From positions 27,873 to 91,872 of the forward strand of contig CAMPDV010002068.1 in assembly GCA_946699065.1 (NCBI GenBank): a stretch of 64,000 bases of DNA, given 5' to 3'. The position numbers were made by a program, and so were the translations under genes. This DNA is from Loxodes magnus. Its lineage: Eukaryota > Ciliophora > Karyorelictea > Loxodida > Loxodidae. The notes beneath the pieces are model-generated. The model did not search any database, had not been told where the DNA came from, and worked only from the letters and a program-made list of their open reading frames with translations. Shown here in pieces: positions 1 to 64,000 of this stretch. How positions within the stretch are numbered: position 1 is the stretch's first letter; each line of letters opens with the position of its first letter.

Positions 1-239
1 TATAATTAATGAGAACAGTTATATTACATTAGCAGCTAATTCGTGGCAAATCTATTAATGCTGATGTTATGTAAATTAATTAATTTTTTTATTAAAGAAA
101 CCTATTTTACCTCTTTTTTCTTATTTTCTTAATAATTTTTTTATTTTTATTTGACTAAGCCATTTCTTTCTCCTCCCTTAAATATTTAATATAATTACAG
201 CTGATTAAAATTAAGAAATCTACTTATAGGAAAGAACTT

Positions 240-3090
240 TGTTTATAAGCAAAACTAATGAGAAAATAAAATTGCATGCAGCAATTGATTGGTAAATTAT
301 ATGGAATATGTATAATATAAAGATTAAAAAGATAAAAGAATAGCTATAAATAAGTAAGTTTATAAACTTTCATAATATATATGTAATTTATAAAGTTATT
401 CTCTTTAGTTAAAATAGCTTATTAATCTTTTCTTTTCAATTCAAAGTTATCACTATACCAACCTGATAATTTCCTACTCCTTTATTTTTACATGATGTTT
501 CTCTATTTAATATTATATATTCTATCAGAAACTAAAAAGAAAACAGATATAAGATTAATTCAAGAAATTAGCAGGTTAAATGGGATTTAAAACATATAAA
601 TGAAGACTATTATAATACATGAAAGAAAATAGTATAGGAAGGAGTGGAGACCATATGTGGATACACAAGTCAATAATAAAGAAAATAAAATTACTCTGAG
701 GAAATAAAAAAGCTAAGAAGAGAATTTTAAAATTAAGCAAAAATAAGTTAAAAATCTTATAAGATAAGGAAAAAGGGACATTGCACTCAACATAAAAATG
801 AAACAAGAAGCCAGAAGTAGATTAGAAAACAAGAAAGAAAAGATTAAAGAAACTAATTCAATAGCTGTCTGGGAAAGATTAATCAGGGAAATATGAATAA
901 TATTTGGAAAGGAATTTAAAAGTACACTAGACAAAAGAAGTTTACTACTTGAACATTGATAAACTAGGACCAGATAAATGCTAAATAGGAGTAATAAAAG
1001 CCGGAGGAGAGAATTTAATAAATATAACTCAAAATTAATTTAAAATATAATTTAATCGGGTAAAATACCTAAACAGATTAAAGAATCCTACATTATATTG
1101 CTACACAAAAAAGGAAACACAGATGACCCTATGAACCACCATTCAATATCACTTATAAATAACCTTTTGAAAATCATAGATCTCTAACTATTCGAGTAAT
1201 TAAATCCTTATTTGTAAAGATGAGATGATGAATTATAGTACGGATTTAAAGCAGGTAAATCATGCTCTCAATAAACATTCAATTTAAGAACAATACAAGA
1301 ATGATTATATTATAACAATTATGAGGCTATCATCATTTTTATTGATATCAAAAAGCATTTGATTCAGTAATCAGATAAGATATATGAAAAATACGGAATG
1401 TGATCGAAGTACCTGAAGGAGTAATAAGACTCCTAGCAGGCATATATAAAGAGGAGAGCAAAGATTAAGAATAAAGAACTAGTCTCTGAAGAATTTGAAA
1501 CTTAAAAAGGAGTAAACTAAGGATGTGCCTGCTCCCCGAGATTATTCAATATAATAATAAATTATTTACTGAATGAACTAAAGGAAAAAAAGTTGGGATT
1601 ACAATACAAATTGAAACGGAACAGGGAACAGAAGTAAGATATGTAGGGAACAGAAGTAAGATAAGTAGGTGCCCTAGCATATGCTGATGATATTGTAGCA
1701 TTATTTCATCGAGATTAACTAGAAGATATGACTGATATACTATAATAATGATCATAGCGATATAATTTATAAATTGCGGACAAAACAAAATGAATGGTAT
1801 GAAATGGTAATGCAAGACAAAATTAAGAGATAATCGCAATAAATGGAATATTAATAGAGAAAGTGAAGGAGTTTAAGTATTTGGGCCATTGAAATAAGAA
1901 AACATTTCATATTAAAAACACCTGGAATCAAGAATCTAAGAATACCAGAAAACCCAAGCATGAATATAAAGTAAATTAACAATTCAGAAAGGAATTATTC
2001 CATATAATGCATCTATAATAATAAAATCCTTTATAAATCAAATATTTGGTTATGGAAGCGATTGTATTTCATTCATAGAGGAAGTTATAGGAAACAATTC
2101 TTTAAATAAATTGTAGATCACGAAGCGTAGATCATTAAGAGCTGCAATAGATGTTCCTTTTCGCATAAAACGAAATCCTGGAGAATGAATTGCAATTCTT
2201 TAAACTACAATACTATATGTGATAATGTATGTTAATGTTCAATAGAAAATTGCTCCTAAACTAAGAATCAACATTAGATGGATAATTATGTCAATTAGCA
2301 AAGAGGAATAACTATATATTTGAAAACTACACAAGGAAGGTTATGGAGATACTTCAGTTCAATGACAAAATAACAATACAGGATAACTGAAAAGGAACAA
2401 ATGGAAAAATATTGATAAAAAAATGATAAAATTCCATAATGATGTAAATTCCACTACACAAATGTAGATTATGATAACCTGCTAAAAATATCGAAGTGAA
2501 TGAATGAAAAAATTCATACAAGGAATGCTAAACTATCTAAGATTCAACAAACAAAGAAAACATGAAATATGGTACTTGTTTAGGATAATGGCCAAATTGT
2601 AATGGAGCAGCATAAACGATGAAAGAACTAAATCTAATGGAGAGTGAAGCATGTTAGTTCTTTAATTATAGAATGGAAGATGAGATCATATAATAGAAGA
2701 TTGCAAATAATGCAAAGAGGAAAGAGAATAGTTAATAGAAAATCTCGCGAACGTAAATATCAGTAATAACTAATAAAAATAAGCCTTCCTTAACCTCAGA
2801 TTGAAAAAATAGTGTGAGGAAATTACAAATTCGAAATTTTGATACGAGTCCTATAAGCAATAAAAAGAAAAGAAATAGGTTGTCACATTAAAAATTTTCT
2901 GAAAGATATATTAGAGAAAAGAAAACGAGGCTATATTTAAAAAATTTTATCTTATTAGAAAACAATTGGTAAAAACTACAGAACATGATCCAACTAGCAT
3001 ACTTGAATTTATAATAGTTTATCATGAGGACGAAAATAAAAACTTGATTTAACAGCTTTATAAAAATTAAAAAAAAATGTGGAAAGAAAC
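240..3090 (+). pseudogene. Non-LTR (LINE) retrotransposon ORF2: reverse transcriptase, frameshifted relic
   Basis: Read with TAA/TAG=Gln and TGA=Trp, RT motifs appear in canonical order: KLGPDK (961-978), IPKQIKES then KKGNTDDP...ISLIN (1,065-1,160), YGFKAGKS (1,239-1,262), FIDIKK (1,338-1,355), DSVIRQDIW (from 1,361), GVNQGCACSPRLFN (1,509-1,550), catalytic YADD (1,680-1,691) and EFKYLG (1,869-1,886). A C-terminal C...HIIEDC zinc-binding tail lies at 2,652-2,704. The order and the YLG and HxxxxC elements resemble RTE/R4/Dong-like LINEs; the exact clade is not determined. A working enzyme would do target-primed reverse transcription. Frame breaks: one base missing between FIDIKK and DSV (expected DIKKAFDSV), an extra base in GAGGAGAGC near 1,455, a 22-bp duplication just before YADD, and a shift inside the tail. 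An SYH at about 450 may be a decayed endonuclease SDH. Confidence 0.85.
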
Positions 3091-3141
3091 TTGTGATGCG
3101 ATAGGAAAAGACTAACAGATATTTTTACTATCTAAAGACAA

Positions 3142-3790
3142 ATGAAAGAGTTAGAAAAGTAACAGATAGAGAACAGAATTCTACTTTTAAAAAAAAACCT
3201 AATGATTGAGATTGACTCTAACTATTCAGATCAGGATATAATGAATCTATTGGAAGAAGAATTAGAATAATGGAAGAAAATGAGCAGATTCTGGTCAGAT
3301 AAGATAATTTCCAAGAATATTCTTGCTTTTGATTCTCTCTTAATTTGTGGTCAACCTATCAATAGTGAAACCACGTAAATTAATTAATTCATATATTAAA
3401 AAATATCACCTAAGAAATAGCAGGCTTTTCCAACAAAACCTAATAATTAACCAGACCTTACTAATGACTCCACTTCTTACAATTGGATAAGAAGCTAACA
3501 AAAGAAGTTTAAGACCTTAAATAAATAGCCTAATCTTTTAAGCTAGTAATTAATAAACTGATAAATGAATAGAGACCTAAGCAAAAATTAAAATAATAAA
3601 CATTTCTAAAGAGATAGAATGATAGGTTACTTAAATCGAAAGGAATTTTAGATAAAAATTTGACCAGAGGATTAGTTAACTGGAGCAAATCAAACTTAAC
3701 TAACAATCTGATTCAGAATCAAGAAGATAAAAAGAATTCTTCCTTTAACTTCTGCTATTAGAAAATAGAAAAAAAGATATTGATACTGAT
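3142..3790 (+). pseudogene. ORF1-like coiled-coil pieces (A0), related to module C
   Basis: Two coiled-coil stretches lie between the RT relic and module A. At 3,142-3,295 MKELEKQQIENR leads into an acidic IEIDSNYSDQDI, resembling the C-terminal tail of module C (FEIDSDEDMYS). At about 3,440-3,750 another frame gives DKKLTKEVQDLKQ and a long Gln/Lys/Leu-rich helix, resembling module C's N-terminal coil (KKLEEPHEQDII). Gln is often TAA. The simplest reading is two degraded copies of a C-type ORF1, tail then head. No zinc knuckle survives. The function of the live form would be RNA binding and multimerisation, by family analogy only. Confidence 0.5.
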
Positions 3791-5860: not shown

Positions 5861-7284
5861 GAACAGAGCAATATTAAAAATTATATATGATGATAAATCA
5901 GTTATTTAATCAAAAATTTACAATATAAATAAAGAAAATAAACAATATATAAATAAAGCTAATATAAATTAAGAAGAAAAATAAAAATATTGTTAACATT
6001 AATTTTCTAAATTATATTTATGTATTATTAAATGAAAGATAAAATTACATTTTCCTAAAGGTATTTTATTTTATTTTACTTGCTTTGTTAAGTTTACTCC
6101 TTCATAAAGTATGTGAGTTTAATTTGTATAATTTAAATAAAAAATTAATAAAAATTATCTTACATATGTAAATATAGAAAACCAGTTTTGATATAAAATA
6201 AATTTCAAGCATTTATTAAATAAATATAATTGTATATTTGATTTTTATATTAATATAATAAAATTTAAAGTTACAAAAATATATTTTCCAAAGTAAAATT
6301 ATAATAAAAAATCAATCTTTTATTATTTATTCGTTCCTTCACTATTTAAATAAAAAGATTTACTATATCATTATATTTATTTTTAGCAGTATTTTTATAA
6401 ATAAATAAGTTTTCGACTATAGCTCAGTAAATTATCCAAATGATACAGATGGGCTAAACAGAAAAAAGAGAGATATATATATATATATATATATGCTAAT
6501 ATATTATTTATATATTATTTATATATTATTTATATGTCATACTGTAAGTTATTATAAATTTAAAAAATTCGAATTCCATTTTCTCATTTCAGTCTTAACA
6601 TAAACTCGAAAAGTGGTCCTTATAAATAAAAGGACAAATCTCCTTTAGGAATATTTTTAGCTTCATATACCCTAAGAGTATAACCATTCTAAGAAACCTA
6701 AGATTAAAATTCATTTTGTTTTCCACATCATAAACTTCCACTCTAAAAATCGATTTCTAAAACATAAAACTATTCAGCTTCAATTTCTATTTTGGATTTT
6801 TCTCAAAAAAGTTATTAATAATATTTCTTATTAAAAACATTAACACTTGAATTATAGTTATTTTTTCAAATGACATCTTAATTTTAATAAGTTGCTTGAT
6901 TTCCTTTTATTATTCTAATAGTTGATATATAAGCCATTTATTATTAAGAAACCGAAGGATAAATAGATATTTCATAAAATTAGCAATCTTTATTCATTTT
7001 AAAACATAAATATCCCTTCTTTCCTCCTACCTCTCAAAATATATTATCATCAACATTTTTATTTAAAACAAAATCAGTTATATTTGATGAAAATATTCTA
7101 TTTTACTTTTGTTCAATATCTAAAAGTATTTTATTTTGCTCTGCCTCTTCTGATTCTCAAATGCTCAATAAATAAAGTTAAATTAAAGATAATAAATTTT
7201 CTTAGTGATAATCTAAATCATTTTATCTCTCTATTAAATCTTATTTTAAAACTAAAAGATCTAAAATTTCTAAGTCATCTAAGT
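5861..7284. other. AT-rich spacer with a short minisatellite (unit 1)
   Basis: No motif-bearing frame seen. It holds homopolymer runs and, at 6,472-6,535, a TA run followed by about three copies of the 11-bp ATATTATTTAT repeat that is hugely expanded in unit 3. ATG-initiated frames here (for example from 7,084) are Leu/Phe/Ile-rich and look like composition artefacts. Confidence 0.6.
6472..6535. repeat. TA run plus 11-bp minisatellite, short allele (unit 1)
   Basis: (TA)n at 6,472-6,494, then ATATTATTTAT about three times, ending in TTATATGTCATACTG, which is the right-hand boundary in all three units. Confidence 0.85.
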
Positions 7285-7664
7285 TATGTTTATAATAATA
7301 CTCTTCTATTGTTAAAACTTATTCTTTTTCATTTTCTTTTTATTAAATTTCTTATTTTTAAATTTCTTATTTTTATTAGTAGACTATCATTTTATTATTG
7401 CCACCTACATTTATAAAAACTCTAAATAAGTTATTCATTTGAATGTCAGAAAATTCTTTTTTCTTTTTATTTTCTTCTTTCATTATTTTAGTTTCTTTAT
7501 ATGAAGTACGTAAGATTTACTTATACTAAGTTCAGAATTAAAAGATTTCCTTTTAGTTATAACTTTAAGTAAGTTGTGATTTAAAAAAGTTAATTTTTTA
7601 TAGAGTTAAGTAATGCTAGTTTTAATATTATTGTAGTTGTTCTGTTTATTATTTAGATTTAAGT
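7285..7664. repeat. Inverted repeat, left arm (unit 1)
   Basis: Reverse-complement match to 10,125-10,476: for example GTAGACTATCATTTTA and GCCACCTACATTTATAAA in this arm, and ATTTGAGTTTC-like flanks diverging outside. This arm has a ~40-bp insertion of TTTCTTATTTTTAAA repeats near 7,340-7,375. A further short match (8,018-8,080 to 10,105-10,040) suggests the pair was once longer. It may be the terminal inverted repeats of a mobile element enclosing module E, or a simple inverted duplication. Confidence 0.75.
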
Positions 7665-8450
7665 GTTATACTCTACTATTTTAGTTAGTTTATTTAAAGA
7701 TTTAGTTTTTATTAGATTTCTTAAATTTATTGAATCACTTTAGTTTTGTTTGTATTTCATAGTTACATCTAATCTATAGAGTTTTATAAGTTGAGAGAGA
7801 GTTGTTTAAAGTTGTATTATAATAGATTTTATTGTTCTTAGTTTCTTTATTTTTGATATAACTGTTCTAAAATACTTTAATCATTATTTAACTAGATGAC
7901 AGGAGTAAGAGACATTTTATAATCGAAGGGACACATAAACTATTAAATAAAGAAGTAATTTTAGCAACAGTTAAGGCAGATATTTTTTCCACAGTCTAAG
8001 AGTTTAGGAAGATTATCGGTTAGATTATAAGATTTAGAGCAAAGAGAGCAATGGAATGGAAGACTTAGTTAAGTTTTTTCCATTTTATAATTTATCAGTT
8101 TAAAACAGTTAAAATGATGATTTGATAATTAAAATAAAAGTATTAAAAATATTTAATAATTAGATGTATTTAAGTTAATAAAAAAATTTTAAACTTAGAA
8201 ATAAATTTATTGGATATGAATAGTTAAATATTTAATACTTAATAATGTTTATATTCTTTTTATTTTCACTGAATTATTAAACAGTTAAATAATTTTTTTA
8301 TTTTAAGGTTATTATTAATAAAGATATTTTATAAAAAGTGAATAAGACAAATATTATCGCGAATTTTTATTTATTTTCTTTTTATAATTTATTAACAAAA
8401 AAATTATTTAAAATTATTTCCTTTTAAATATTTTAAAACTGGTAATTTTT
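7665..8450. other. Left part of the inverted-repeat interior (unit 1)
   Basis: Mostly AT-rich. At 7,890-8,080 the + strand is open in the reassigned code and less biased in composition (DDRSKRHFIIEGTHKLLNK, then VKADIFSTVQEFRK). I recognise no family. In unit 2 one change here is synonymous (AAT/AAC) and one is not (ATT/AGT); unit 3 has a frameshifting extra T. This may be a decayed exon or chance. Confidence 0.3.
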
Positions 8451-9668: not shown

Positions 9669-10124
9669 TTTGATAAAGTTTTTTAAGGTTTATAAAGTTG
9701 AAATCTTTCCATGTACTATCATTCTCTTAAAGTCTTGTCTTTTATAGAGCGGTAATCGGATTGCTTCTCTAAGAGACTTTAGTAATTGTCATCTTTCATC
9801 AAAGCACGTTATATTTGATGCCTCCAGTTCTGTCTCTTTTAGCTCCTGTCAAGATTCTTGATCGGTTTTTCGTCTATAGGATAATTTGTGACACCAGAAG
9901 TTAGTAAATCTCAGTTGGAGGAGTGATCCTGCATATTTAAATTATAAGTAAAATGAAGTGAAATAATAAATTGATGAACTATTAAATAATAATTTAAAAA
10001 TAAATCTACACTTAAAATAAATTAAACTACTTTCCTTAATAACTAACTTTCATTTATATCATTTTAATTATTTCTTGCTCTAAATCTTATAGTCTAATTG
10101 ACAATCCTCCTAAAAAATATATCC
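9669..10124. other. Spacer between motif b and the right inverted-repeat arm (unit 1)
   Basis: The part 9,690-9,930 is less AT-rich than its surroundings (AGAGCGGTAATCGGATTGC, GATGCCTCCAGTTCTGTC). Read on the - strand it precedes motif b and E, the position a head/leader element would hold, but I could not align it convincingly with the heads at 16,287 or 20,831. The rest is AT-rich with nothing recognised. Confidence 0.35.
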
Positions 10125-10476
10125 CTTAAATCTAAATAATAAACAGAACAACTACAATAATATTAAAACTACCATTACTTAACTCTATAAAAAATTAACT
10201 TTCTTAAATCATAATTTACTTAAAGTTATAACTAACATGCAATATTTTAAATTTTAACTTAGTATAAGCTAATTCTTCATATCTCATATAAAGAAACTAA
10301 AATAATGAAAGAAGAAAATAAAATATAAAAAGAGTTTTCTGACAATAAAATGAATAACTTATTTAGAGTTTTTATAAATGTAGGTGGCAATAGTAAAATG
10401 ATAGTCTACTAATAAAAATAAGAAAATGAAAAAGAATAAGTTTTAACAATAGAAGAGTATTATTATAAACATAATT
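10125..10476. repeat. Inverted repeat, right arm (unit 1)
   Basis: Pairs with 7,285-7,664 around a ~2.46-kb centre that contains ORF1-like E on the - strand and hairpin motif copy b. No transposase frame was recognised in the centre. Confidence 0.75.
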
Positions 10477-11030
10477 AAGAAGATTTGGAAATTTTATAAA
10501 ATTTAGCTTAATATTAATCATATTTTTTACTTATGATAATAGAATAATTTATTTAGCATATATGTAAATTTATCATAGAGAATTTAAACATTAATCATTA
10601 TAAAAAAGAATTAAAAATATTAAACTTTAAATGAAATGATAGAGAAAAAACTGAAAGTTACTTACTCATCCTTAAAAAATAATCTAAAATTTTGCTTAAA
10701 AATTTAAAAACCTAATAGCAGATTAAACTATTTTAATTACTTTAAGAAAATACCACGAACTTTTTATATTTAAAAAAATAATATAAAGTATAATAAAACA
10801 TCTTATACTCTTTCTTATGTAATTACCAAATCTGTTCTCAAATATTAACTTTTTTGAGAAATCAGAAAAATGTTTTCATTTAGAATGCACTCTTACTTAT
10901 CATAAAAATTATAAGATTTTATACTTACACACTTCTCTAGTTATAAATAAACATTCGCTTAATTGATCATAATTAAATTAAATTAATAAGTAAACATCAT
11001 TTTAATTAATTTCAACTATAAAATTTATTG
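10477..11030. other. AT-rich spacer before the GC-rich modules (unit 1)
   Basis: I see no gene. The last ~40 bases (TTTTAATTAATTTCAACT) also occur, inverted, beyond the inverted GC-rich module at about 17,355-17,375, so the inverted duplication extends a little into this spacer. Confidence 0.5.
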
Positions 11031-11310
11031 GAAACTCCTTTCCGATTGCACGACCCGACGCTCTCTTTTTAAGGAATAACGGGGATATCCTGTTATGCTC
11101 CAGGCACAGCTGTTAAGGAGCTCCATCGCTATGAGCAGCCAGGCTTCAAGCCCCTACCAAGAGCGGATAATCTCAAAGACAGCGTTCCCTTCAGAAAATG
11201 ACTCTGACCAGGGACTTTCTCAGCGACAGGAAAGGAACTTGTTCCTAGTCATAAAACCAGAAAGTTTAGTCACGAAGGTCAATCTCAGCTCCCACCATCT
11301 TTTCAATTAT
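11031..11310 (+). other. GC-rich coding-like module, tandem copy 1 (unit 1)
   Basis: An island of roughly 48% G+C in ~22% G+C surroundings. The + frame from ATG 11,095 reads MLQAQLLRSSIAMSSQASSP, then SENDSDQGLSQRQERNLF and VIKPESLVTKVNLSSHH; with TAA=Gln it extends upstream (RRSLFKEQRGYPV). Differences between the module copies are biased to silent or mild changes in this frame (GAC/GAT, CAG/CAA, CCT/CCA, ATC/ATT, TTA/CTA), arguing for past coding. The opposite strand is also open and several of the same changes are silent there, so strand choice is moderate. No domain is recognised. It could be an exon of a captured host gene or of a mobile element. Confidence 0.5.
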
Positions 11311-11480
11311 TTCATTTTATCCAAGTTAAATTTTTTTTATCTATTACTTCATTCATTAATCATATGAAAAGATAAAGAATCTAAAAATAATTTTTAAAAT
11401 ATTTTTTATTTTGATTTAATTTAATTTAATTTAATTTAATTTTAAACTTAAAGAATTTTGGACTGCAACTTCTTGTAGTT

Positions 11481-11740
11481 TAACGACCCCAACACTCCCT
11501 TCATTGGATAAAGGGGATATCCTGTTGTGCTCCAGGCACAGCTGTTAGGGAGACCCATCGCTATGAGCAGCCAGACTTCAAGCCCCTACCAAGAGCGGAT
11601 AATCTCAAAGACAGCGTTCCCTTCAGAAAATGATTCTGATCAAGGACTTTCTCAGCGACAGGAAAGGAACTTGTTCCTAGCCATAAAACCAGAAAGTTTA
11701 GTCACGAAGGTAATTCTAAGCTCCCACCATCTTTTCAATT
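11481..11740 (+). other. GC-rich coding-like module, tandem copy 2 (unit 1)
   Basis: Repeats copy 1 at a spacing of 432 bases; its left flank differs (AACTTCTTGTAGTTTAACGACC) and is shared with copy 3. It carries GATTCTGATCAAGG for GACTCTGACCAGG (three silent changes) and GTAATTCTAAG for GTCAATCTCAG at the 3' end. The interval to copy 1 contains (TTTAA)n repeats. Confidence 0.5.
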
Positions 11741-11904
11741 ATTTCATTTTATCCAAGTTAAATTTTTTTTTATCTATTACGTCATTCATTAATCATATGA
11801 AAAGATAAAGAATCTAAAAATAATTTTTAAAATATTTTTTATTTTGATTTAATTTAATTTAATTTTAAACTTAAAGAATTTTGGACTGCAACTTCTTGTA
11901 GTTT

Positions 11905-12170
11905 AACGACCCCAACACTCCCTTCATGGGATAAAGGGGATATCCTGTTATGCTCCAGGCACAGCTGCTAGGGAGACCCATCGCTATGAGCAGCCAGGCT
12001 TCAAGCCCCTACCAAGAGCGGATAATTTCAAAGACAGCGTTCCCATCAGAAAATGACTCTGACCAGGGACTTTCTCAGCGACAGGAAAGGAACTTGTTCC
12101 AAGCCATAAAACCAGAAAGTATGATTCAGAAGGTCAATCTCAGTTCCCACCATCTTTTCAATTATCTTTT
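11905..12170 (+). other. GC-rich coding-like module, tandem copy 3 (unit 1)
   Basis: Spacing of 423 bases from copy 2. It differs in protein at PESMIQKV (PESLVTKV in copies 1 and 2) and NLFQAIK (NLFLVIK), while TTCCCATCA and ATAATTTCA are silent changes. Its right flank, TTTTTATTTTGATTAAATC, marks the last module in all three units. Confidence 0.5.
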
Positions 12171-47171: not shown

Positions 47172-47247
47172 TTCATACTGACAAGAATGTTTGTTGCTGA
47201 TAAAATTATCAGATACTGGTAGACCTTGTTCAATGCTGATATAATTT
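47172..47247. repeat. 19-bp direct repeats, four copies (unit 3)
   Basis: Two of the six copies (38 bp) are missing, as expected for slippage or unequal exchange between repeats. One ACTG core has become GCTG. Confidence 0.75.
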
Positions 47248-47274
47248 TAGAATACTCGTAATCTTTAATATTTG

Positions 47275-52484: not shown

Positions 52485-52800
52485 TTTTAATTTTATATAG
52501 TGAAATAATAAATTTAATCTATCTTTATCTTATTTGTTATGATCATAAATATTAAAATTTTAGTTATTATTATTCATTATATTTTATCGTTATCTTTAGA
52601 GAATTCGCAATCAATCAATTCTTTATTGAGAATACTGTATACATTTTTATTAAATTGTTCTTAAACGGGTAATTAAAGCCTGTTTGAAAAAGCTTTATCA
52701 ATTTAATATGTAGATCAACCATTTTCTTGAATTATTCAACTAGTTATAAGTTTTAGTTTTAATTAAACTCATTTTCACTAATATAAGATCTCAGATCATT

Positions 52801-52834
52801 AGAGTATGTAGCACCTCAATGATTTTGCAGCTCT
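52801..52834. repeat. 34-base hairpin motif, copy b (unit 3)
   Basis: As copy b of unit 1 with one extra T (GATTTTGCAG). Confidence 0.7.
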
Positions 52835-53289
52835 TTTGATAAAGTTTTTTAAGGTTTATAAAGTTGAAATCTTTCCATGTACTATCATTCTCTTAAAGTC
52901 TTGTCTTTTATAGAGCGGTAATCGGATTGCTTCTCTAAGAGACTTTAGTAATTGTCATCTTTCATCAAAGCACGTTATATTTGATGCCTCCAGTTCTGTC
53001 TCTTTTAGCTCTGTCAAGATTCTTGATCGGTTTTTCGTCTATAGGATAATTTGTGACACCAGAAGTTAGTAAATCTCAGTTGGAGGAGTGATCCTGCATA
53101 TTTAAATTATAAGTAAAATGAAGTGAAATAATAAATTGATGAACTATTAAATAATAATTTAAAAATAAATCTACACTTAAAATAAATTAAACTACTTTCC
53201 TTAATAACTAACTTTCATTTATATCATTTTAATTATTTCTTGCTCTAAATCTTATAGTCTAATTGACAATCCTCCTAAAAAATATATCC

Positions 53290-53642
53290 CTTAAATCTAA
53301 ATAATAAACAGAACAACTACAATAATATTAAAACTACCATTACTTAACTCTATAAAAAAATTAACTTTCTTACATCATAATTTACTTAAAGTTATAACTA
53401 ACATGCAATATTTTAAATTTTAACTTAGTATAAGCTAATTCTTCATATCTCATATAAAGAAACTAAAATAATGAAAGAAGAAAATAAAATATAAAAAGAG
53501 TTTTCTGACAATAAAAATGAATAACTTATTTAGAGTTTTTATAAATGTAGGTGGCAATAGTAAATGATAGTCTACTAATAAAAATAAGAAAATGAAAAAG
53601 AATAAGTTTTAACAATAGAAGAGTATTATTATAAACATAATT
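53290..53642. repeat. Inverted repeat, right arm (unit 3)
   Basis: Matches the right arms of units 1 and 2 with a few one-base indels (for example GTAAATGATAG for GTAAAATGATAG near 53,563). It is the likely donor of the patch in the unit 3 left arm. Confidence 0.75.
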
Positions 53643-54199
53643 AAGAAGATTTGGAAATTTTATAAAATTTAGCTTAATATTAATCATATTTTTTACTTAT
53701 GATAATAGAATAATTTATTTAGCATATATGTAAATTTATCATAGAGAATTTAAACATTAATCATTATAAAAAAAGAATTAAAAATATTAAACTTTAAATG
53801 AAATGATAGAGAAAAAACTGAAAGTTACTTACTCATCCTTAAAAAATAATCTAAAATTTTGCTTAAAAATTTAAAAACCTAATAGCAGATTAAACTATTT
53901 TAATTACTTTAAGAAAATACCACGAACTTTTTATATTTAAAAAAATAATATAAAGTATAATAAAACATCTTATACTCTTTCTTATGTAATTACCAAATCT
54001 GTTCTCAAATATTAACTTTTTGAGAAATCAGAAAAATTTTTTCATTTAGAATGCACTCTTACTTATCATAAAAATATAAGATTTTATACTTACACACTTC
54101 TCTAGTTATAAATAAACATTCGCTTAATTGATCATAATTAAATTAAATTAATAAGTAAACATCATTTTAATTAATTTCAACTATAAAATTTATTGGAAA

Positions 54200-54470
54200 C
54201 TCCTTTCCGATTGCACAACCCGACGCTCTCTTTTTATGGAATAACGGGGATATCCTGTTGTTCTCCAGGCACAGCTGTTAGGGAGACCCATCGCTATGAG
54301 CAGCCAGACTTCAAGCCCCTACCAAGAGCGGATAATCTCAAAGACAGCGTTCCCTTCAGAAAATGACTCTGACCAGGGACTTTCTCAGCGACAGGAAAGG
54401 AACTTGTTCCTAGTCATAAAACCAGAAGTTTAGTCACGAAGGTCAATCTCAGCTCCCACCATCTTTTTAT
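54200..54470 (+). other. GC-rich module, single copy (unit 3)
   Basis: Left flank of a first module and right flank of a last module, as expected if two copies were lost by recombination. ACCAGAAGTTTAG near 54,422 lacks one A of ACCAGAAAGTTTAG, closing the frame five codons before the VNLSS end. Confidence 0.5.
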
Positions 54471-55939
54471 TTCCTTTTTATTTTGATTAAATCTTACTTA
54501 ATTATCAGAACTATAATCTTTTAATTTACAATTTTTCATTTTAAAAAATATAATTTGACTATTTTTTATTGAATATGGTTGTTTTTATTGTTAAATGAAA
54601 TAAAATAATTTTAATTTATTTAATAAATAATATGCAATTATAAAAAATTAAAATTGAAATATTTATTTAACTTTTTTATCTTTATCACATTTTTTAATTT
54701 CAACAACTTATTTATTTTATAAAATTTAGCTATTATTAATAAGATTTTCTTCTTATTTATGTATTTTAATTATATTTCATTCATTATTAATTTAATGTAT
54801 CTTAATAATTTATATTTCTCATTCTAATTGTGATCATTTTCTATTCTGTATCTATCATTTTCTTATTTTTCGATATTCTTATCTTTTTCAATATCCTATC
54901 ATATTTAATTTTTTTTATAGCTTGCTTTATTTTTTAAGTTGCTATAAACATTTTTTTTTCAAACTCTAAGCTTAAAAATAAAAAAATAGTGAAAATTAGA
55001 TATGAAGTGTAAAAATTAACTGAAGCAATAAAGCAAATAAATAGTGACATCTGTCTATAGAATACAATAATAAAAGTATGGAAGCTTGGAAATATTAGAT
55101 GTTGAGAATGAAGTTAATATTAAATTTAAATATTCATTAATAATTTTTAAATTAATTTTGAGCAAATTACTTTAAAATTTATGAAGCTTACTTTTAATTA
55201 AAAAGATTATCTTCTTAAGACTTTTATTTTCAAATAAAATAGAATCATAATAGTTAATAGCAATAGCTTATCTTAGTTTAGAATAAATATTCTTTTTAAT
55301 ATAAAAAGATGTGAAATAATAAATTAAATTAATTTAATCTTAAAAATAAAACAAATATTTTTATATTTCATTTTGAATGAGAATATATACTTTGTAAATT
55401 ATAAAATAATAAAAAATCTTACCATTTAAGTTTAAATAAATGGAAGTTAAATCGAATGTTAAGAGAAATTTATAATTGTTTCTTATGATTAATTAATATT
55501 TTTTATAAATATTTTCAAACTGCTGAAACAAACACGAAAGAAATTTGAATTTATAAAGAAAATTAAAAAAATGATAATATTACAGTAGAATAAATTATAT
55601 TAGTGTTTATATTTTATTTTTTTATTATTTTTTAATTAAATATAAAAATCAAATAAACTTTCAAAAATAAAGCTACTAATAACTATTTATTAATTTTAAT
55701 GGATTAAAATCTAATAATTTTACACAAATATCTTAAATATATTTTTATATATAGCATTTAAAAAGTAAACACTAGATTTTAAAAAAAAGTTAGTTAATTA
55801 TATTAAATTACTTTTTTTAATATTTTAATTGTAAGAAATAATTAATTTTATGTTAAGTTATAAAAATAGTATAATTTAAATAAGTAATTTATCTATATTT
55901 AAAATTTATATAAAAGATTAAATAAACAATAATAAAAAA

Positions 55940-56930
55940 GGAATAATCTGTCCATCTCTTAAAGAATTACTTAGAAACTTAAGAAGAAAAGCAGCAAAAT
56001 AAATAGAGAAAAAGCAATAACAACAAGAGGAATCGAGTTCCTCATCAGAAGGTAAAGTTATGACCGGAACTTCAAAGATAGAAAAACCTTAAAATTAATT
56101 GACCAAAAATTATAAAATAAATACGACCAAATTAAAAAATTTATCTAAAAGTACGAAGAAACAATCTACAATTAAGGGAAAATCAGAGAATTAATGAAAA
56201 ATAATGACGACTAAATAAACGAGGTATTAATACGATGCGTCAGTTATCTAAAAAGTTTATAATAGAGAAATAACTTTATGAATAATCACAATCGATAGTT
56301 ATTTCATAAAAATCATGATTATAGAAAAAATCTTAACTAAATTAATTTATTAAGAAAAATAATAAGAAGAAAACTGAAAAATTTACAAAATCGAATAGAG
56401 AAATTGAAAAAAAAATTTAAGAAGCAAAATCAGAAAAAACCAACCAAAAACTGTTACTACTGCAATTCAGCCTACCATATTTTACTACAATGTTGAATAT
56501 GAAAACAACTAAGGATAAAAGAAGAACGAAGAATCGGAAGAAGTCTAAATAAATTCTGAATAAACTCTGAAATAACGGAAAATGGAATCTTCTAGTAGAA
56601 ACCTTTATCAAAAATGAAATTATCTATTATTGGTAGTTTACTACATATAAAAAAGATTGTGGCATTCATCCACGTAAAAAAAATGGCAGTAAGTATCTGG
56701 TTGAAAGCCAAGGGAAAGCTAAAACTCTCAAAATTTAAGTATATTATTATTATAAGAAAAAATGTATTGAAATAAAAAATTTAATTTTGATTAAGATTAA
56801 CTTAAAAGTTAGTCTCAAGGAACTAAAATATTCTTTTAAACCTTAAGTAATAAAAGCAATAAGAATTAGAAAATTAGAACAATAATTACATACTAAGTTG
56901 TAATTCTCAGCTATAATTAAACCTTAAAAG
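55940..56930 (+). pseudogene. ORF1-like protein B, unit 3 copy
   Basis: Knuckle at 56,452-56,493, intact. One-base losses near 56,096, 56,180 and 56,371 fragment the N-terminal and middle parts. Confidence 0.6.
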
Positions 56931-57149
56931 CATCTTAAGTCGATGTTACACTTGAGATTTCTTTGATTTTTTTAACTGAATAAATTAATATGCAACATGC
57001 TTTTTAACCAGATCTTTAATTTTAAGCATTAATAAAATTAAAAGCAAATCAATGATAAAAAGAGAATATAAAATTAAGTAGAAGAAATTTGGATTTATAT
57101 CGTAAGAAAGAGATTCATATCTCTTCCAAAGGATATACTATGAACAAAA

Positions 57150-57620
57150 TTGCTGAATTATTTACTATTACTCCTTAATATTTAACTAATTGATTATTTT
57201 TTTTGCATTAATCATTTAACTCTTTAAAGTTTTATTTATATAATTTTTTCATAGATTTCATTATTTTGTTGATTAAAAGTCCTTTCAGTAGAAATTTTAA
57301 ATATTATGATTCTTCTTCATTTTCATATTTTAATGTTATCCAGCTCAGTTATTTCAAGTATAAATTGTTCGTGCTTTTCATTTGTGTCTATCTCTATTTA
57401 TAGTAATTTGTGGCTTTAAACTTCTTTCCATTATTTGCAGTCGAACAATAAAATGTATATAAGTTTGACCTGCTTTTCTTCTTTAATTTTATTTGAAAAA
57501 TCTACTATTTCCTACTAAATGTTTTAATTTCTTCAGCCTATCATCTCTTTATTACTCTTCGTCCTTTAATATCCATTTAGATTTTAGGTTTGATATTAAA
57601 GAACTACTATGAGTATTAGA
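57150..57620 (-). pseudogene. Possible ORF1-like protein F, unit 3 copy
   Basis: Close to unit 1 with one-base losses near 57,308, 57,431 and 57,492. Confidence 0.3.
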
Positions 57621-58576
57621 AAGTTGAAAGTACTCATTTACATTCCTTGGAGTTTTTATCATACTAGTGATCAGGTAAGAGATTCCTCTTTTATATCTTA
57701 ACTTTAATTAGTAATTCTTATTTTTCTTGCTTTATTATGAATTCTCAGTTTGCGTTCAGTGAAGTTAACTTAAATACGCTTATTAATAGATTGACTGATA
57801 CCTAAAAAGATAGTATGATATATAATTATCTAATTAATAGGCTATAAGGAATTGCTAAACTATATCAAACTTGATGATACAGATTTATTTAAATATCAAC
57901 CAGTATAAATGGAATTTTGGACTAACATTATCAGAACTTAGTATTTTTAAATTAATAATGGTAAATTATTGATTTAATGTAAGAGTTTTGCTTTAAATCT
58001 CAAACTATCATTTTTCTGGAATACATCAGTATAATCTCTGAATGTCTCTTTTTCGAAACATAGATATCTTAAAAGCTCTACAACTAATTAAAATTTTATG
58101 AAATCTATTGAGAATTAATAAAAATAAAGAAACTATAAAAATAATAATCAATTTATTTGAAATTCTAGATATATCTAAAATATCTTAAATACAAAGTTTA
58201 GTAAACAGATATTACTCCTAATTTTCACAGGAGATACTAGCAAGTCTAAAGTATATTTATATTAAAAATGATAATTAAAACAATTATTAAATATAAATAA
58301 AATAATTATATTAAGTATCTAGAAATTACTCATTTTTAATATAAAAGTATTTATATTCAACTTATCAAAAATATTTTTATTAAATCTAAAATAGTAAATC
58401 AATTATTGATAAAAAATGCTTTATAATTTATAATTAACTGTTTATATCAAAAGATTATTAAAGTCAATTATAAATTATATTTAAATTATATACTTTTGTA
58501 ACTAAGTTTAAGTAACTATTAATATAGAAATTTCTTTGCAAACTTTGACGAATATAGAACTAGTTATTAATATATA

Positions 58577-58930
58577 TATAAAATGGATATCGGCTGCGGT
58601 CGGGAGACCTAGTAGACAAGCTGGTGCAGTGTATACTGCATTGCGAATATTTAGGACTAGATGCCACCACAAGTAAGGGTGAATAAGCTCGGAAGAGACA
58701 AACCTAACTTGTCTGAGGGTTCTCGCTATCAATATGAAAGTTTGATTGGCGGGCTTTCTATTTAAGGACTTAATAGTTAATCTTATTTGGAACTTATTCA
58801 AGAAGATTGGAGCATTTGATTCTAGATTCGAGAATAATGTTTAATAAGTAGATTCTCCGATTGGAGTAGCTGACATGACTCATTGGACTTCTATAAATTT
58901 AACAAGAAACATTAGAACATTTTTCATAAT
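58577..58930 (+). repeat. Head element 1 (unit 3)
   Basis: GCAGT/ACTGC is intact; CCACC pairs with GGTGA only in part. GGAGTA as in unit 2. Few indels compared with neighbouring sequence. Confidence 0.6.
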
Positions 58931-58950
58931 AATTAAATATTAATATTGAA

Positions 58951-58983
58951 AGAGCTACGCGTCAATGAGGTGCTACACGCTCT
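58951..58983. repeat. 34-base hairpin motif, copy c (unit 3)
   Basis: Carries CTACGCGTCAAT; the terminal AGAGC/GCTCT stem is kept. Confidence 0.7.
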
Positions 58984-59362
58984 ATAATAAAATTTATTTA
59001 TTTTAATTTATTTATTATTAAAAAATATAATAATAAATAAAATTATTTTCAATTATTAAAAATAAAAGTATTTTTGGATTAAGATACAGTTAAAATAAGA
59101 AATCTATATAATGAAGAAAATAAAAACTTTATATAAATTATTGTTTAAGGTAAAATATTTACTCTTATAATTTAAAATTTTTCTGTAATAATCTCATCTA
59201 TAATAATCTTAAAAGGAAGAAAAATAAACTTCTAAATTATAATATTTATTTAAAGTAGCATTTACCTTTTTATAAATAGATAATTATAAAAGATAAACTA
59301 AAAATATTAAATAATTATAGATTTATTAATTAATATATTTAAAATTATTATACAATAATTGA

Positions 59363-59640
59363 AAAGATGGTGGGAGCTGAGAATTACCTTCGTGACTAAA
59401 CTTTCTGGTTTTATGGCTTGGAACAAGTTCCTTTCCTGTCGCTGAGAAAGTCCCTGGTCAGAATCATTTTCTGAAGGGAACGCTGTCTTTGAGATTATCC
59501 GCTCTTGGTAGGGGCTTGAAACCTGGCTGCTCATAGCGATGGGTCTCCCTAGCAGCTGTGCCTGGAGAACAACAGGATATCCCCGTTATTCCATAAAAAG
59601 AGAGCGTCGGATCTTATAATCGGAAAGGAGTTTCTTATCC
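59363..59640 (-). other. GC-rich module, inverted copy (unit 3)
   Basis: Frame from 59,534 intact on the - strand. It reads LSQRQER and KTAFPS, like the + modules and unlike the R/L variants of unit 1, with NLFQAIK as in copy 3 of unit 1. This mixing suggests exchange between inverted and direct copies. Confidence 0.55.
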
Positions 59641-60216
59641 CAAAAACTCTTTTAGTTGAAATTAATTAAAATATTTCTATTATATAAAATAGTATATAAA
59701 AGTATTTATTATAAAATCTCTAAAGCCATATTATTTTTGCAGCAATATGAAATAGAAAGATTTTAATCCTTTCAATTTTATAAACTACTTAAAATTTGGT
59801 TATAATTTAAAATTAAATGAAATATAAATAAATTATAATATGTTGATTTTATAATTAATAACTTAAACTTTATTATTTGATTATTATTTTTATTTCATTT
59901 TTTAATTATTTTTTATCTATTAAATTTACTAATAACTTTCCATTTTAATTAATTTATAATTTTTATTCTTTATGTTTTTGGTTAATATTAGTATTCATCT
60001 TATTAAAATTTAAATCAATTAGCATTGTGATTAAGGTAAAATTATCTAATTTAATTATTGATATTTTATAGATTTTATCTCTCTAATTAATTAATAATAA
60101 GCTTTATGATAAATAATAATTAAATCTTATAAAATTAATTTTTTTATACTTCATATAATATCTCTAATAGCTTTTATATTAATCCTACCAATATTTTTAA
60201 AAGTCTTTTTTTTTAA

Positions 60217-61046
60217 ATGAAAAAAACCCGGGAATCTAACCTTAACGTTTAGTCTTAAAGATTAATCTTAAGTCTCAGTTAACTAAGAAGAAACAAAGGA
60301 TTCAAAAAAGATAAATCTACTCCTGTTAAGGATTGGGAAATACTGAATTTCCTAGCAAACTGAAAAAGTTTTGAGGAACCCCATGAGCAAGACATTATTT
60401 AGCTTTATTCATTAATTGAGAAAATGAATACCGAAATATAGATCCTAAAGGCGGAAAGCTTGAATCTTCGGCTTCTTTTGTTAGATAGAAAAAAGGAAGA
60501 TCAAAACTCAGAAAGTAAATTTTAGTTTTAAATCGAAGCCTTAGCTTCCTAATTTGAACTATTTTAAAAAAACCTAGAAGCAAAATCAATAGAAAATTAA
60601 AGAAGAAATTCGATTGTCAATCAAAAAAAAACTAACCTCAATCAGATAAAATGGATAAAAATTTTAATTCAAGCCCTCAATAAAACGTGCTATTGTTGTC
60701 AAAAGGTTGGAAATTTTTGGAGGTAATGTCCGAACTGAAGAAGAGTGCTTGAGCAGCACCATAAAGAATCTGGAACATCGAGGAGACTTTATTGTAACTA
60801 CTTTGAGGTATTTACAGAAAGAAGCTGATATTAGATGATCTAAGTGTGACACTAATCAAACAAGATCTTAGTAATTAATAGTAACAGAATTAATAGCTTT
60901 AAAAGGACAGCAATGACCTTAGAATTTGTTTAGAGAAGCTGGAGAAAAATTACAAGAAGATGGAAGAACAATTCTATGAACTTATTGAAGAGAAAGAAGA
61001 ATTATCTCAGTTTGAAATTGATTCAGATGAAGACATGTATAGTTGA
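60217..61046 (+). pseudogene. ORF1-like protein C, unit 3 copy, frameshifted
   Basis: Knuckle at 60,688-60,729, directly preceded by a one-base loss (AACGTGC for AACGTTGC). Other one-base changes lie near 60,239, 60,290, 60,368 and 60,583, and CTTTGAGG for CTTTGGAGG near 60,804. The terminal FEIDSDEDMYS and TGA are kept. Confidence 0.6.
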
Positions 61047-61074
61047 GTATTGAATATAAAAACTTTAATTGTCT

Positions 61075-61104
61075 TTAATTTGAGGAAACATTTCCTCTAA
61101 TTAA
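61075..61104. other. 14-bp hairpin after ORF1-like C (unit 3)
   Basis: Identical to unit 1 although the adjacent C copy has several indels. Confidence 0.6.
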
Positions 61105-61286
61105 AGATGACCCTAACCCTTATAGTTAAAATTTATTAATTAAAAGTCTTTTTAAGGATTAAATATAATATAAACATTGATTTAAAACTGCTTTAATTAC
61201 TATTAATGCCTTTATTTTATGTAAATAATAATAATTTCTGAAATAAAATTATTATTTTTAAAAATGTTTTTAATAGTAAAAATAAA

Positions 61287-62226
61287 ATGGAAAAATTCAA
61301 AAGAGCTATTTTTACCACCTCAAAGAAGCTAGAGAGGAAACTTGAATCCTATCTTGGATAGTTTTTTCCCTCAACCATAACTTTTTTCTTAATCCTAATA
61401 ACTAGGAGAGGAACAAAAACGAGCTCAGAAGACAACACATGCGAATACTTCAACCTCATAAGAGAAACCAAGGAAGGAGATGAAGTTTGTTCTTCACTAG
61501 GCGGCTTGGAGTTCAATCCTTCTACCAGATGAGTATGGAATAGCTCATAAAATTAGTTCAGAACCTCCAGGAGGTTAGAAAGCTGTAAAAGTACAATGAA
61601 AAATTAAAGGAGAATCTGAACAAGCAAGAAGAATTAAAATCAAGACTCATATCTTAGGAGAGAGATCTAAGAGCTTTCTGGAACATATTTCAGAGTCCGA
61701 ACAGCTAATCCAAGAATCAAGATTAAAAATGCAGAGAAATTAACGATAATAAACACAACTAGTAGAAAATCAGCAAAAATTTCAAAGGTAAATTGAATCA
61801 AGGGATAAGAAATAAGACAATACGGAGGTCGAAGAAATTAAAGTTGACAAAACTTTATATAAGCGAGAAGTGAAATCCTACTAATGTCTATTAATGTGGC
61901 TCAAATGAACATTTATGAAGGAAGTGTAGGAAATTCCTAAATTTCAAAAAGAGTTACTGGCAAAACCTAAGATAACAGAAGGAAAAAAGGAGAGGTATCA
62001 ACAGCTCAAACTAAGAAGGAGTAGAAAACAGTTATGGATGAACGCTCTTGGAATATATACAAGAAAAAGGCAACTAGTGATGAAGAGAAACTAGAGACTA
62101 TAAGAGCAAGCAAGATAGGATAGTAGGTAGAATACGAAAATTTAATTTTAGCTCCGGAGCAATCTCGAGGAAAGATAGAAATAGGTTGAAATACATAAAT
62201 GAAGTAAAACACCTTTAATCATAAAC
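61287..62226 (+). pseudogene. ORF1-like protein D, unit 3 copy
   Basis: ATG 61,287. AATTAAAGGAG for AATTAATGGAG changes Met to Lys in the coil. One-base losses near 61,745, 61,990, 62,068, 62,082 and 62,150 disrupt the 3' half, including TTTTAGCTCCGG for TTTTAGGCTCCGG at the GSGA box. Confidence 0.55.
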
Positions 62227-63116
62227 TAACATTACATAAGAAAACTAAAAAAGAGAAAATATACAGGGACACTAATAAACTGACCAAAATTTTTGAAATA
62301 TAGTAAAAATATATCAAAAAGTTTCATGGTCTCAAAATATTCTCATATTACTAAATTAATTAGAATCTATATAATTGGATGAAAATAAAGCCAGATTAAA
62401 TTTAAGTTAACTTTAAATTTTATAAGGAAGCTCTCAAATTTAATTATTGTATCCATAATATAAGAATGAATCATATAATTATACAAATTATAATTTTAAT
62501 ATTTTTATCTAGTTTATATGAATAAATTAAACTTATCTTAACATCTTATTATTTTAAGATGAAACAGAAATATAAATTTAGCGCTCTCTTTAATTCTATT
62601 AGAATTAGATAAAAAATGTAGTTATATAACTCAAGCTATTTAGTTCAAAGGAATGAACTTTAAATTAATTAGATAACTATTAAAAATTATTATTTCATTC
62701 AAATTTAAGAGATTTTTCTAATCAACTGGTTCTTATTAACTCGAAAAATATAAATATGCATCTAATAATTAATTTCTTACCTTCAATCAAATTATCATTA
62801 TAAATGAGACGATCTTTAATTTATTAATCAACATCTAGCATATAAGAAATATTATTAAACTTGCTTTTATTTAATTTTTGAATTTTTAAAATAAAGATAA
62901 TTAAATTCTATTAGACAAAGATATTAATTTCTTTATGTATGCAAAGTTAATTACTCTATCTTTATAAATATTTAATTTAATCATTTGATAGGTTTGCTAA
63001 CTTATTTACAAGAGTATCATTATTATTTATTCAATATTAAATAGCTTTTATATTCTTTTTTCCTTAGTTATATTTGCTTTTTATTTTTTCTTATATTTTA
63101 TTCATAATTTTTAAAT

Positions 63117-63411
63117 ATGGACCGTCAGATTAAAGTTGAGAGAACTAGGTAATCTGGTACAGTGTATACTGCTCTGCCGATCATCTCACATTAGATGCCT
63201 GATAAAAATGGAAAAATTTGGATAAGACACACCTAACTTACCTAAGAGTTATAACTAGAAGAATAAAAATGTGACTGAGGAGCTATTTATTATATTTATT
63301 CTTATTGGATATTATTTTAGAAGACTGGAACATTTAATAAAAAAAATGTTAATAAGAAGATTCCCCATTTAGAAAGCTGACGTGACTCATAGGATGACTA
63401 GATTAAGATAG
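63117..63411 (+). repeat. Head element 2 (unit 3)
   Basis: As in unit 2, with ACTGCTCTGCCG for ACTGCATTGCCG and an extra G at its start (ATATGGACCG). Confidence 0.6.
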
Positions 63412-64000
63412 TATAATTAATGAGAACAGTTATATTACATTAGCAGCTAATTCGTGGCAAATCTATTAATGCTGATGTTATGTAAATTAATTAATTTTTT
63501 TATTAAAGAAACCTATTTTACCTCTTTTTTCTTATTTTCTTAATAATTTTTTTATTTTTATTTGACTAAGCCATTTCTTTCTCCTCCCTTAAATATTTAA
63601 TATAATTACAGCTGATTAAAATTAAGAAATCTACTTATAGGAAAGAACTTTGTTTATAAGCAAAACTAATGAGAAAATAAAATTGCATGCAGCAATTGAT
63701 TGGTAAATTATATGGAATATGTATAATATAAAGATTAAAAAGATAAAAGAATAGCTATAAATAAGTAAGTTTATAAACTTTCATAATATATATGTAATTT
63801 ATAAAGTTATTCTCTTTAGTTAAAATAGCTTATTAATCTTTTCTTTTCAATTCAAAGTTATCACTATACCAACCTGATAATTTCCTACTCCTTTATTTTT
63901 ACATGATGTTTCTCTATTTAATATTATATATTCTATCAGAAACTAAAAAGAAAACAGATATAAGATTAATTCAAGAAATTAGCAGGTTTAAATGGGATTT
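63412..64000. repeat. Start of a fourth tandem unit (truncated by window end)
   Basis: Matches positions 1 to about 590 almost base for base, so the array continues past the window. It stops just inside the linker upstream of the reverse-transcriptase motifs, so no RT domain is present. Confidence 0.95.

What the first reader, a model, noticed from the sequence alone, without database searches (positions are those of the whole stretch)
1..64000. Array of ~21-kb composite units made of retroelement pieces
Over three copies of a 20.7-21.6 kb unit follow one another directly, each holding an RT relic, several ORF1-like genes on both strands, inverted repeats and GC-rich modules. A satellite with a unit this long and this complex is unusual. 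It could be a locus that grows by unequal exchange, a micronucleus-limited block, or an assembly of one looping locus.
Basis: seen in the sequence. Interest (0 to 1): 0.75.

Follow-up and report, generated by a model that had tools for sequence, protein, structure and literature searches.

The report
Repeat-bounded tandem array of RING-PHR genes
In a genome that matches the ciliate Loxodes magnus, a stretch of about 21,000 bases has been copied head to tail many times, probably because two copies of a scattered short repeat at its ends recombined; each copy carries a member of a protein-coding gene family, not only retroelement debris.

Summary
The array is real: units of 21,124, 20,656 and 21,631 bp. 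The assembly (705.73 Mb; in-frame TAA/TAG/TGA in actin genes) matches the published Loxodes magnus macronuclear assembly, so 'micronucleus-limited' fails if that inferred identity holds. The array lies on six contigs that read as one locus. Both edges fall at a dispersed ~310-bp element, M. The left-edge M has a 19-bp target-site duplication; all 10 junction M copies read (of 18 listed) resemble the right-edge M at the 5' end and the left-edge M at the 3' end, as unequal exchange between two M copies predicts. The unit is not only retroelement pieces: its minus strand (6584-8083) holds a 499-codon RING/PHR-domain gene. Of 13 gene-length paralogs in the flanks 11 are open, but only 5 of 18 array copies are open throughout. 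Codons 41-120 show 0 of 480 third-position differences from six flanking paralogs, codons 281-499 show 422 of 1314, and site patterns are mosaic: paralogs seem to exchange sequence. Copy number and order are unresolved. The amplification mechanism is known; I found no report of this family in my searches.

The parts
   Evidence: self-BLAST
21125..41780 (.). unit 2
   Evidence: self-BLAST
41781..63411 (.). unit 3; 61 singleton 1-bp deletions and 45 singleton 1-bp insertions in the C2068 unit that covers most of it, mostly in homopolymers where typed (56 of 61 deletions)
63412..64000 (.). start of unit 4, 99.83% identical to 1-588
17034..17392 (+). M element at the unit junction (core 17063-17373); array edges on C200/C2230 and C192/C3248 fall at this element
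37689..38045 (+). M element, next junction
   Evidence: C2068:65561-65917, shifted by 27872
59329..59687 (+). M element, next junction
   Evidence: C2068:87201-87559, shifted by 27872
10983..12165 (-). three M-related copies (10983-11311, 11505-11743, 11923-12165) opposite to the junction M; the last two lack one end of the core; fewer in units 2 and 3
6584..8083 (-). RING-PHR gene of unit 1, 499 codons and TGA (TAA/TAG=Q, internal TGA=W)
27683..29182 (-). RING-PHR gene of unit 2, open; its C-terminal part matches Pfam PHR at 29.8 bits (cut-off 23.6)
49765..51249 (-). RING-PHR gene of unit 3 as assembled, frame broken by 1-bp indels; consensus error likely, true decay not excluded
10118..10443 (+). 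fragment of the RING-PHR gene, inverted against 7345-7670, 90.5% identical
1107..1890 (+). reverse-transcriptase relic (RVT_1) of a dispersed non-LTR family; copies in units 2 and 3
13550..14453 (.). passenger: dispersed ~0.9-kb repeat, 80-83% identical to copies elsewhere
17923..18851 (+). passenger: dispersed ~0.9-kb repeat with a CCHC-like ORF, 87-92% identical to copies elsewhere
48185..49716 (.). 11-bp satellite, about 140 copies, in unit 3 only (5.5 copies at 6474-6535 in unit 1)

Best explanation
This is one long-unit tandem array at one locus of a genome that is most likely Loxodes magnus. Two copies of a dispersed, probably retroposed element M once flanked a single ~20-kb segment carrying a RING-PHR gene. 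Recombination between these direct repeats (unequal exchange between misaligned chromatids or homologs) duplicated the segment, and once two units existed, further exchange between whole units could add or remove copies (inferred; only the edges and junctions are shown). Retroelement pieces, satellite and extra M copies are passengers. The gene belongs to a family duplicated repeatedly at this locus, in older units of about 18 kb on the right side, and most flanking copies are open. Copies exchange sequence: the part for the RING and the start of the long helical region is uniform even at third positions, while the PHR half is diverged and mosaic. What the protein does is not known; the most likely guess, from domains alone, is a ubiquitin-ligase-like adaptor whose PHR half recognises variable targets.
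For: Unit and identity. One locus: in five DNA queries every copy with 96% identity or more over most of the query lies on six contigs (C200, C2230, C2068, C192, C3255, C3248; only the best candidates are scored), with a left exit on C200/C2230 and a right exit on C192/C3248. Edges at M. Junction copies: 24 diagnostic columns inside M; the two 5'-most are right-type and the last nine (one 6-bp deletion plus three single columns) left-type in 10 of 10 copies read (6 distinct cores; 18 junction copies are listed). Left M has an exact 19-bp direct repeat joining the left flank to the unit start; longest exact control match 9 bp in 20 mismatched pairs; two other flank M copies have 14 and 12 bp. 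Gene: gene-spanning pairs have 2, 3 and 1 gaps in about 1.6 kb (lengths 1 and 33; 1, 1 and 12; 3) against 31 gaps in 2.3 kb of adjoining DNA compared with C200:83784-86131; 11 of 13 gene-length flanking copies on C192 and C200 are open; pooled pN/pS 0.55 in the C-terminal part over 21 pairs of 7 copies. Domains: TRIM32 RING E=6.8e-7 with an 11-sequence profile; PHR at 1e-6 in the unit-2 copy. Exchange: 0 of 480 versus 422 of 1314 third-position differences; 215 of 465 informative site pairs fail the four-gamete test in gene bases 451-780, 0 of 120 in 1-450.
Against: Inside M the columns between the two ends are a mixture of both types, so the hybrid is not clean. The right-edge M has no direct repeat above control (7 bp exact, 10 with one mismatch). 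Only 5 of 18 array copies of the gene are open over the whole length; 13 are frame-broken or partial as assembled, which could be decay and not consensus error. Among four distinct open array copies pN/pS is 1.21 in the C-terminal part, and substitutions within the array show no third-position excess in the ORFs tested, so constraint within the array is not shown. Both M edges could also arise if a circle formed at this locus re-entered through M. Incompatible site pairs can also come from repeated mutation (2961 of 8515 in the diverged half). No expression data.
Confidence: 0.75

Rival explanations
1. Assembly artefact: one or two genomic copies were looped by the assembler into an array.
For: The published Loxodes assembly used Falcon with overlaps accepted at 96% identity and only ~20-30x coverage. 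C2068 and C192 begin at the same base, C200 and C3255 have the same M and RT-side coordinates near base 1, and C2230 repeats 10 kb of C200 exactly. Unit 3 is rich in probable consensus errors.
Against: Eight distinct units differ by 0.27-1.06% substitutions and by kb-scale length differences; 441 variable sites, 217 of them not simple singletons; six distinct junction M cores among ten; 12 different scores among 18 copies of the RT segment.
Confidence: 0.1
2. A satellite multiplied by rolling circle: excised circles of one unit are amplified and reinserted, so the unit is a mobile megasatellite.
For: Head-to-tail order and M at both edges are also what recombination of an M-bearing circle into an M copy would give.
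Against: No array copy outside one locus was seen (capped searches). The 19-bp direct repeat at the left M joins the left flank to the unit start, so the unit start is at its native site. Flanks on both sides carry older paralogs of the same gene.
Confidence: 0.1
3. Micronucleus-limited block eliminated from the macronucleus.
For: Ciliate-like genetic code; repeats of this kind are germline-limited in other ciliates.
Against: The assembly holding the window has the published size of the Loxodes magnus macronuclear assembly, and that study found macro- and micronuclear genomes equivalent. The species identity is inferred, not tested by rRNA (one search gave no answer).
Confidence: 0.03
4. The array is only decayed retroelement DNA and the RING-PHR reading frame is a coincidence of a code with few stops.
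For: With TAA, TAG and TGA all read as residues any frame is open; 13 of 18 array copies are frame-broken as assembled.
Against: Few gaps in the gene against 31 in the neighbour; RING and PHR matches; conserved internal TGA=W positions and conservation that ends at the final TGA (by eye); pN/pS 0.55 between flanking paralogs; an intact second subfamily with the same domains on C17.
Confidence: 0.04

Closest known systems
Tandem segmental duplication by homologous recombination between dispersed repeats (as in Alu-mediated duplication; class recalled, listing only)
   Same: Edges inside direct copies of a dispersed element, right/left hybrid copies at junctions, target-site duplication at the outer left copy.
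   Different: Here it has grown to an array of 20-21.6-kb units (18 assembled copies on six overlapping contigs) in a ciliate.
Macrosatellites / large gene-bearing tandem repeats (listing only; examples in animals recalled)
   Same: Long unit, head-to-tail order, high identity, one locus, a coding sequence inside.
   Different: A 20-21.6-kb unit, large for this class as I recall it; older ~18-kb series of the same gene stands beside it.
RING proteins with a C-terminal recognition domain (TRIM family) and PHR-domain proteins (MYCBP2/Highwire; recalled)
   Same: RING closest to TRIM32 by profile, long helix-prone middle (low-confidence model), C-terminal domain; PHR matched by Pfam.
   Different: No B-box match in Pfam; two of the usual eight RING zinc ligands replaced (His by Lys, last Cys by Asp) by alignment to TRIM32; RING plus PHR in a ~500-aa protein was not found in my paper searches.

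Membership tests
Long-unit tandem array (macrosatellite) | head-to-tail units of more than 1 kb with high identity | tested here: met
Long-unit tandem array (macrosatellite) | true multi-copy state in the cell, copy number by depth or long reads | not testable with these tools
   no reads available
Repeat-mediated unequal exchange | both array edges fall in direct copies of one dispersed repeat | tested here: met
Repeat-mediated unequal exchange | junction repeats are hybrids of right- and left-edge copies | tested here: met
   10 of 10 junction copies read (18 listed), at both ends of M; middle columns mixed
Repeat-mediated unequal exchange | edge repeats keep their own target-site duplications | tested here: inconclusive
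   left edge 19 bp exact; right edge not above control
SINE / retroposed element (for M) | dispersed copies with target-site duplications | tested here: met
   15 copies on 14 contigs outside the six array contigs among 41 listed, 2924 first-look candidates of which 40 were scored; direct repeats of 19, 14 and 12 bp in 3 of 5 non-junction copies tested, 8 and 7 bp in the other two
SINE / retroposed element (for M) | pol III promoter or LINE-derived tail | not tested
   only Rfam at gathering threshold was run, no match
TRIM family | RING finger | tested here: met
   TRIM32 E=1e-4 single sequence, 6.8e-7 profile; Pfam RING models below cut-off
TRIM family | B-box | tested here: not met
   no B-box among Pfam matches up to E=1
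TRIM family | coiled coil | tested here: inconclusive
   helical in a model of mean pLDDT 32
PHR-domain protein | PHR domain over Pfam's cut-off | tested here: met
   over the cut-off in 2 of 8 members (window unit 2, C17), below it in 4, none in 2, one of which is the unit-1 copy
Micronucleus-limited DNA | absent from the macronuclear genome | tested here: not met
   lies in an assembly of the published macronuclear size; identity inferred

The most novel reading that the evidence does not exclude
Loxodes, whose macronucleus is hardly amplified, may keep and diversify genes through long-unit tandem segments in the germline; at this locus ectopic exchange would hold a RING module constant while shuffling PHR recognition modules, making a diversity-generating recognition family. 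Similar spacings elsewhere (18.4 kb on C17, 16.8 kb at some actin copies, 18.2 kb at an Rpb1-like gene) hint that segments of this length are common here.
Probability: 0.15. Interest if true: 0.7.

Novelty: new member of a known kind. Interest (0 to 1): 0.45.

Why it matters
It shows step by step, from edges, junctions and a target-site duplication, how a gene-bearing long-unit array can arise from two copies of a dispersed element. It also corrects the reading of such blocks as retroelement debris: under the karyorelict code the unit carries a gene of a RING-PHR family with strongly uneven evolution along its length. If arrays of this size are common in Loxodes, they bear on how a ciliate without strong macronuclear amplification sets gene copy number, which can be tested.

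Tried and rejected
Structure: AlphaFold2 with the two window copies gave mean pLDDT 32 and pTM 0.19; no fold search was made. Rfam and ARAGORN found nothing at their thresholds. Standard-code and table-6 ORF lists were not informative alone. Pfam on six frames of most of unit 1 (1-9902 and 11901-21802) gave only RVT_1 over its cut-off; the RING-PHR gene was missed there and found through paralog gaps. The right-edge M target-site duplication did not exceed control; a first script for this had too narrow a search range. The idea that long arrays serve dosage of highly expressed genes is weakened by the Rpb1-like copies. dN/dS used 11 of 14 gene copies: two were dropped as frame-broken as read (C192:124 kb, C200:80 kb) and one (C200:73 kb) because of my extraction, although one search lists it as open; the pooled figures use seven of the 11. 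The species identity was not tested by rRNA: met a busy machine and one search gave no usable answer.
Full report
Observation. The window is a head-to-tail array. Self-BLAST gives unit starts at 1, 21125, 41781 and 63412, and blocks of 4.8 kb or more are 97.6-98.6% identical. Unit 3 carries a 1.5-kb expansion of an 11-bp satellite, and the number of opposite-strand GC-rich modules falls from three to one across the units.

Source. The window is bases 27873-91872 of a 91,872-base contig (C2068) in an assembly of 705,730,643 bases and 7843 contigs. Actin and tubulin matches read through TAA, TAG and, in some copies, TGA. This fits the karyorelict code and the published Loxodes magnus macronuclear assembly of 706 Mbp (PMC11441545: I saw the outline with the abstract, part 1 of 3 of the Results, the sections on retrotransposons, mobile elements, assembly and repeat annotation, and passages). 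The identity is an inference; an rRNA search did not complete. If it holds, the block is in the macronuclear assembly, and that paper reports equivalent nuclei without classical eliminated sequences. It annotated tandem repeats with Tandem Repeats Finder using a last parameter of 2000, which I take to be the longest period, so a 21-kb unit would not be in that annotation.

One locus. In five DNA queries (1001-3000, 6500-8200, 8200-10900, 12600-15000, 17600-19600) the copies with 96% identity or more over most of the query lie on six contigs: C200, C2230, C2068, C192, C3255 and C3248 (only the best candidates are scored, so these are bounded statements). Exceptions to a wider claim: a 397-base fragment on C200 is 100% identical. 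The RT segment has 18 copies on these contigs and 24 further matches at 84-89% elsewhere. C200 and C2230 exit on the left side, C192 and C3248 on the right. The contigs overlap and share ends: C2230 repeats 10 kb of C200 exactly, and C192 and C2068 share a first unit without substitutions. The published assembly accepted overlaps at 96% identity at ~20-30x coverage. So the 18 assembled copies are not a copy number. Among 9 units read in full there are 8 distinct ones, 0.27-1.06% apart by substitutions, close to the published heterozygosity of 0.6%, so the array, or its homogenisation, is young.

Edges and junctions. M has a core of 311 bp in the left-edge copy. The first look of the genome search gave 2924 candidates, 40 scored and 41 matches listed, of which 15 lie on 14 contigs outside the six. 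Homology between flank and array stops at M on the left, and at M on the right. Inside M 24 columns tell the left-edge copy from the right-edge one. In 10 of 10 junction copies read (18 listed, 6 distinct cores among the 10) the two 5'-most columns are right-type and the last nine, one 6-bp deletion plus three single columns, are left-type; the columns between are mixed. The left M is bracketed by an exact 19-bp direct repeat, one copy in the left flank and one at the unit start; two other flank M copies have 14 and 12 bp; the longest exact match in 20 mismatched pairs was 9 bp. An opposite-strand M in the unit has 8 bp and the right-edge M 7 bp, neither above control; the junction M has 7 bp, as expected for a recombinant. 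Shown: edges at M, end-specific hybrids, left target-site duplication. Inferred: that the exchange was between chromatids or homologs, and that whole-unit exchange then expanded the array.

The gene. Three gene-spanning comparisons with flanking paralogs have 2, 3 and 1 gaps in about 1.6 kb, while adjoining DNA (8664-11004 against C200:83784-86131) has 31 gaps in 2.3 kb, 24 of them of length 1 modulo 3. The gene is 6584-8083 on the minus strand, 499 codons, with TAA/TAG as Q, internal TGA as W and a final TGA after which the copies stop resembling each other. At protein level the genome search gave 91 matches (86 of 557 candidates scored). Of 13 gene-length copies in the flanks on C192 and C200, 11 are open across the match and two (C192:124 kb, C200:80 kb) are broken; six fragments are left out of that count. 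Of 18 array copies, 5 are open over the full length (4 distinct sequences, since two are identical) and 13 are broken or partial as assembled. Part of this may be consensus error: the unit with the most singleton 1-bp indels has 61 deletions and 45 insertions, and the right flank on C192 and C3248 differs by gaps only, 0 mismatches in 2052 columns, while the gene copy there is open on C192 and broken on C3248. True decay of some copies is not excluded.

Domains. The RING matches TRIM32 in the Protein Data Bank (E=1e-4 alone, 6.8e-7 with an 11-sequence profile); Pfam RING models stay below cut-off. In that alignment the His and the last Cys of the RING are replaced by Lys and Asp. PHR is over Pfam's cut-off in 2 of 8 C-terminal stretches (unit 2 of the window, 29.8 bits; C17, 25.2 bits), below it in 4 and absent in 2, including the unit-1 copy. 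No B-box was matched. The model was too poor to use.

Uneven evolution. The unit-1 copy against six flanking paralogs shows 0 of 480 third-position differences in codons 41-120 and 422 of 1314 in codons 281-499. In seven representative copies (21 pairs) pooled pS and pN are 0.054 and 0.036 before codon 220, and 0.346 and 0.191 in the C-terminal part, ratio 0.55. Among four distinct open array copies the ratio is 0.60 in the N-terminal and 1.21 in the rest, so constraint within the array is not shown. In ten sequences, 215 of 465 informative site pairs in bases 451-780 and 2961 of 8515 in 781-1497 fail the four-gamete test, 0 of 120 in 1-450. I read this as gene conversion among paralogs, complete in the 5' part and patchy after it; repeated mutation can add to the counts in the diverged half, and nucleotide-level constraint on the 5' part is not excluded.

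Older history and relatives. On C192 the gene and its neighbour recur with steps of 17,915-17,973 bases in the right flank. A second subfamily, 28-29% identical to the window's protein, has five copies on C17 with steps of 18,387, 18,393, 18,376 and 28,088, the first three 100% identical to the query as printed, and a relative on C7808. Both C17 and our protein show the same replaced RING positions.

Wider pattern, tentative. 43 of 96 actin matches have nearly equal top scores, and some same-strand neighbours lie 16.8 kb apart, though most spacings differ. Tubulin also is in clusters, one with 3,342-bp steps. A meant control, Rpb1-like domains, also has neighbours 18.2 kb apart. So long-unit duplication may be widespread, but it is not limited to highly expressed genes, and my sample is small and not random.

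Literature. Eight searches touched these questions; none of the listings showed this array, a RING-PHR family in ciliates or such arrays in Loxodes. PMC6935857 was seen as outline and abstract only; it reports low transcript diversity in Karyorelictea, which does not favour wide paralog expansion. Other papers were seen in listings only. The library lacks most subscription journals.

Verdict. A genuine long-unit tandem array born of recombination between dispersed elements, with a gene inside: a new member of a known kind, with an unusual gene family. Copy number, expression and function are open.

Noticed in passing
G000 contigs C266, C711, C707, C524, C437, C1162 and others: 43 of 96 actin matches are full-length with nearly equal top scores; on eight contigs tabulated some same-strand neighbours lie 16.8 kb apart, others 7-83 kb.
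   Followed up: partly
G000:C17:409399-494127 and C7808:5549-7033: Second RING-PHR subfamily: five copies on C17, four of them at 18.4-kb steps, plus one on C7808.
   Followed up: partly
G000:C441:147748-175110 and C64:618992-934095: Tubulin clusters: nine copies at exact 3,342-bp steps on C441, 21 listed copies on C64.
   Followed up: no
G000:C169:474852-561267, C2400, C2514: Rpb1-like domains also locally multiplied, two full ones 18,207 bases apart.
   Followed up: no
G000:C200:91965-92361: An isolated 397-base fragment 100% identical to window 7647-8043, the uniform 5' part of the gene, without the rest of it.
   Followed up: no
L014 and L011 (starts of C192 and C2068); C200 and C3255; C200 and C2230: Contigs of the array share ends or long exact stretches, as if cut at graph nodes.
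   Followed up: partly
window 48185-49716: 11-bp satellite expanded from about 5.5 to about 140 copies in one unit; C200 carries a similar expansion in another unit.
   Followed up: no
window 6584-8083 and 17034-17392: The 1-kb bins with most variable sites among units are 7001-8000 (63) and 17001-18000 (48) of 441, that is the gene and M, as exchange with diverged copies would give.
   Followed up: partly
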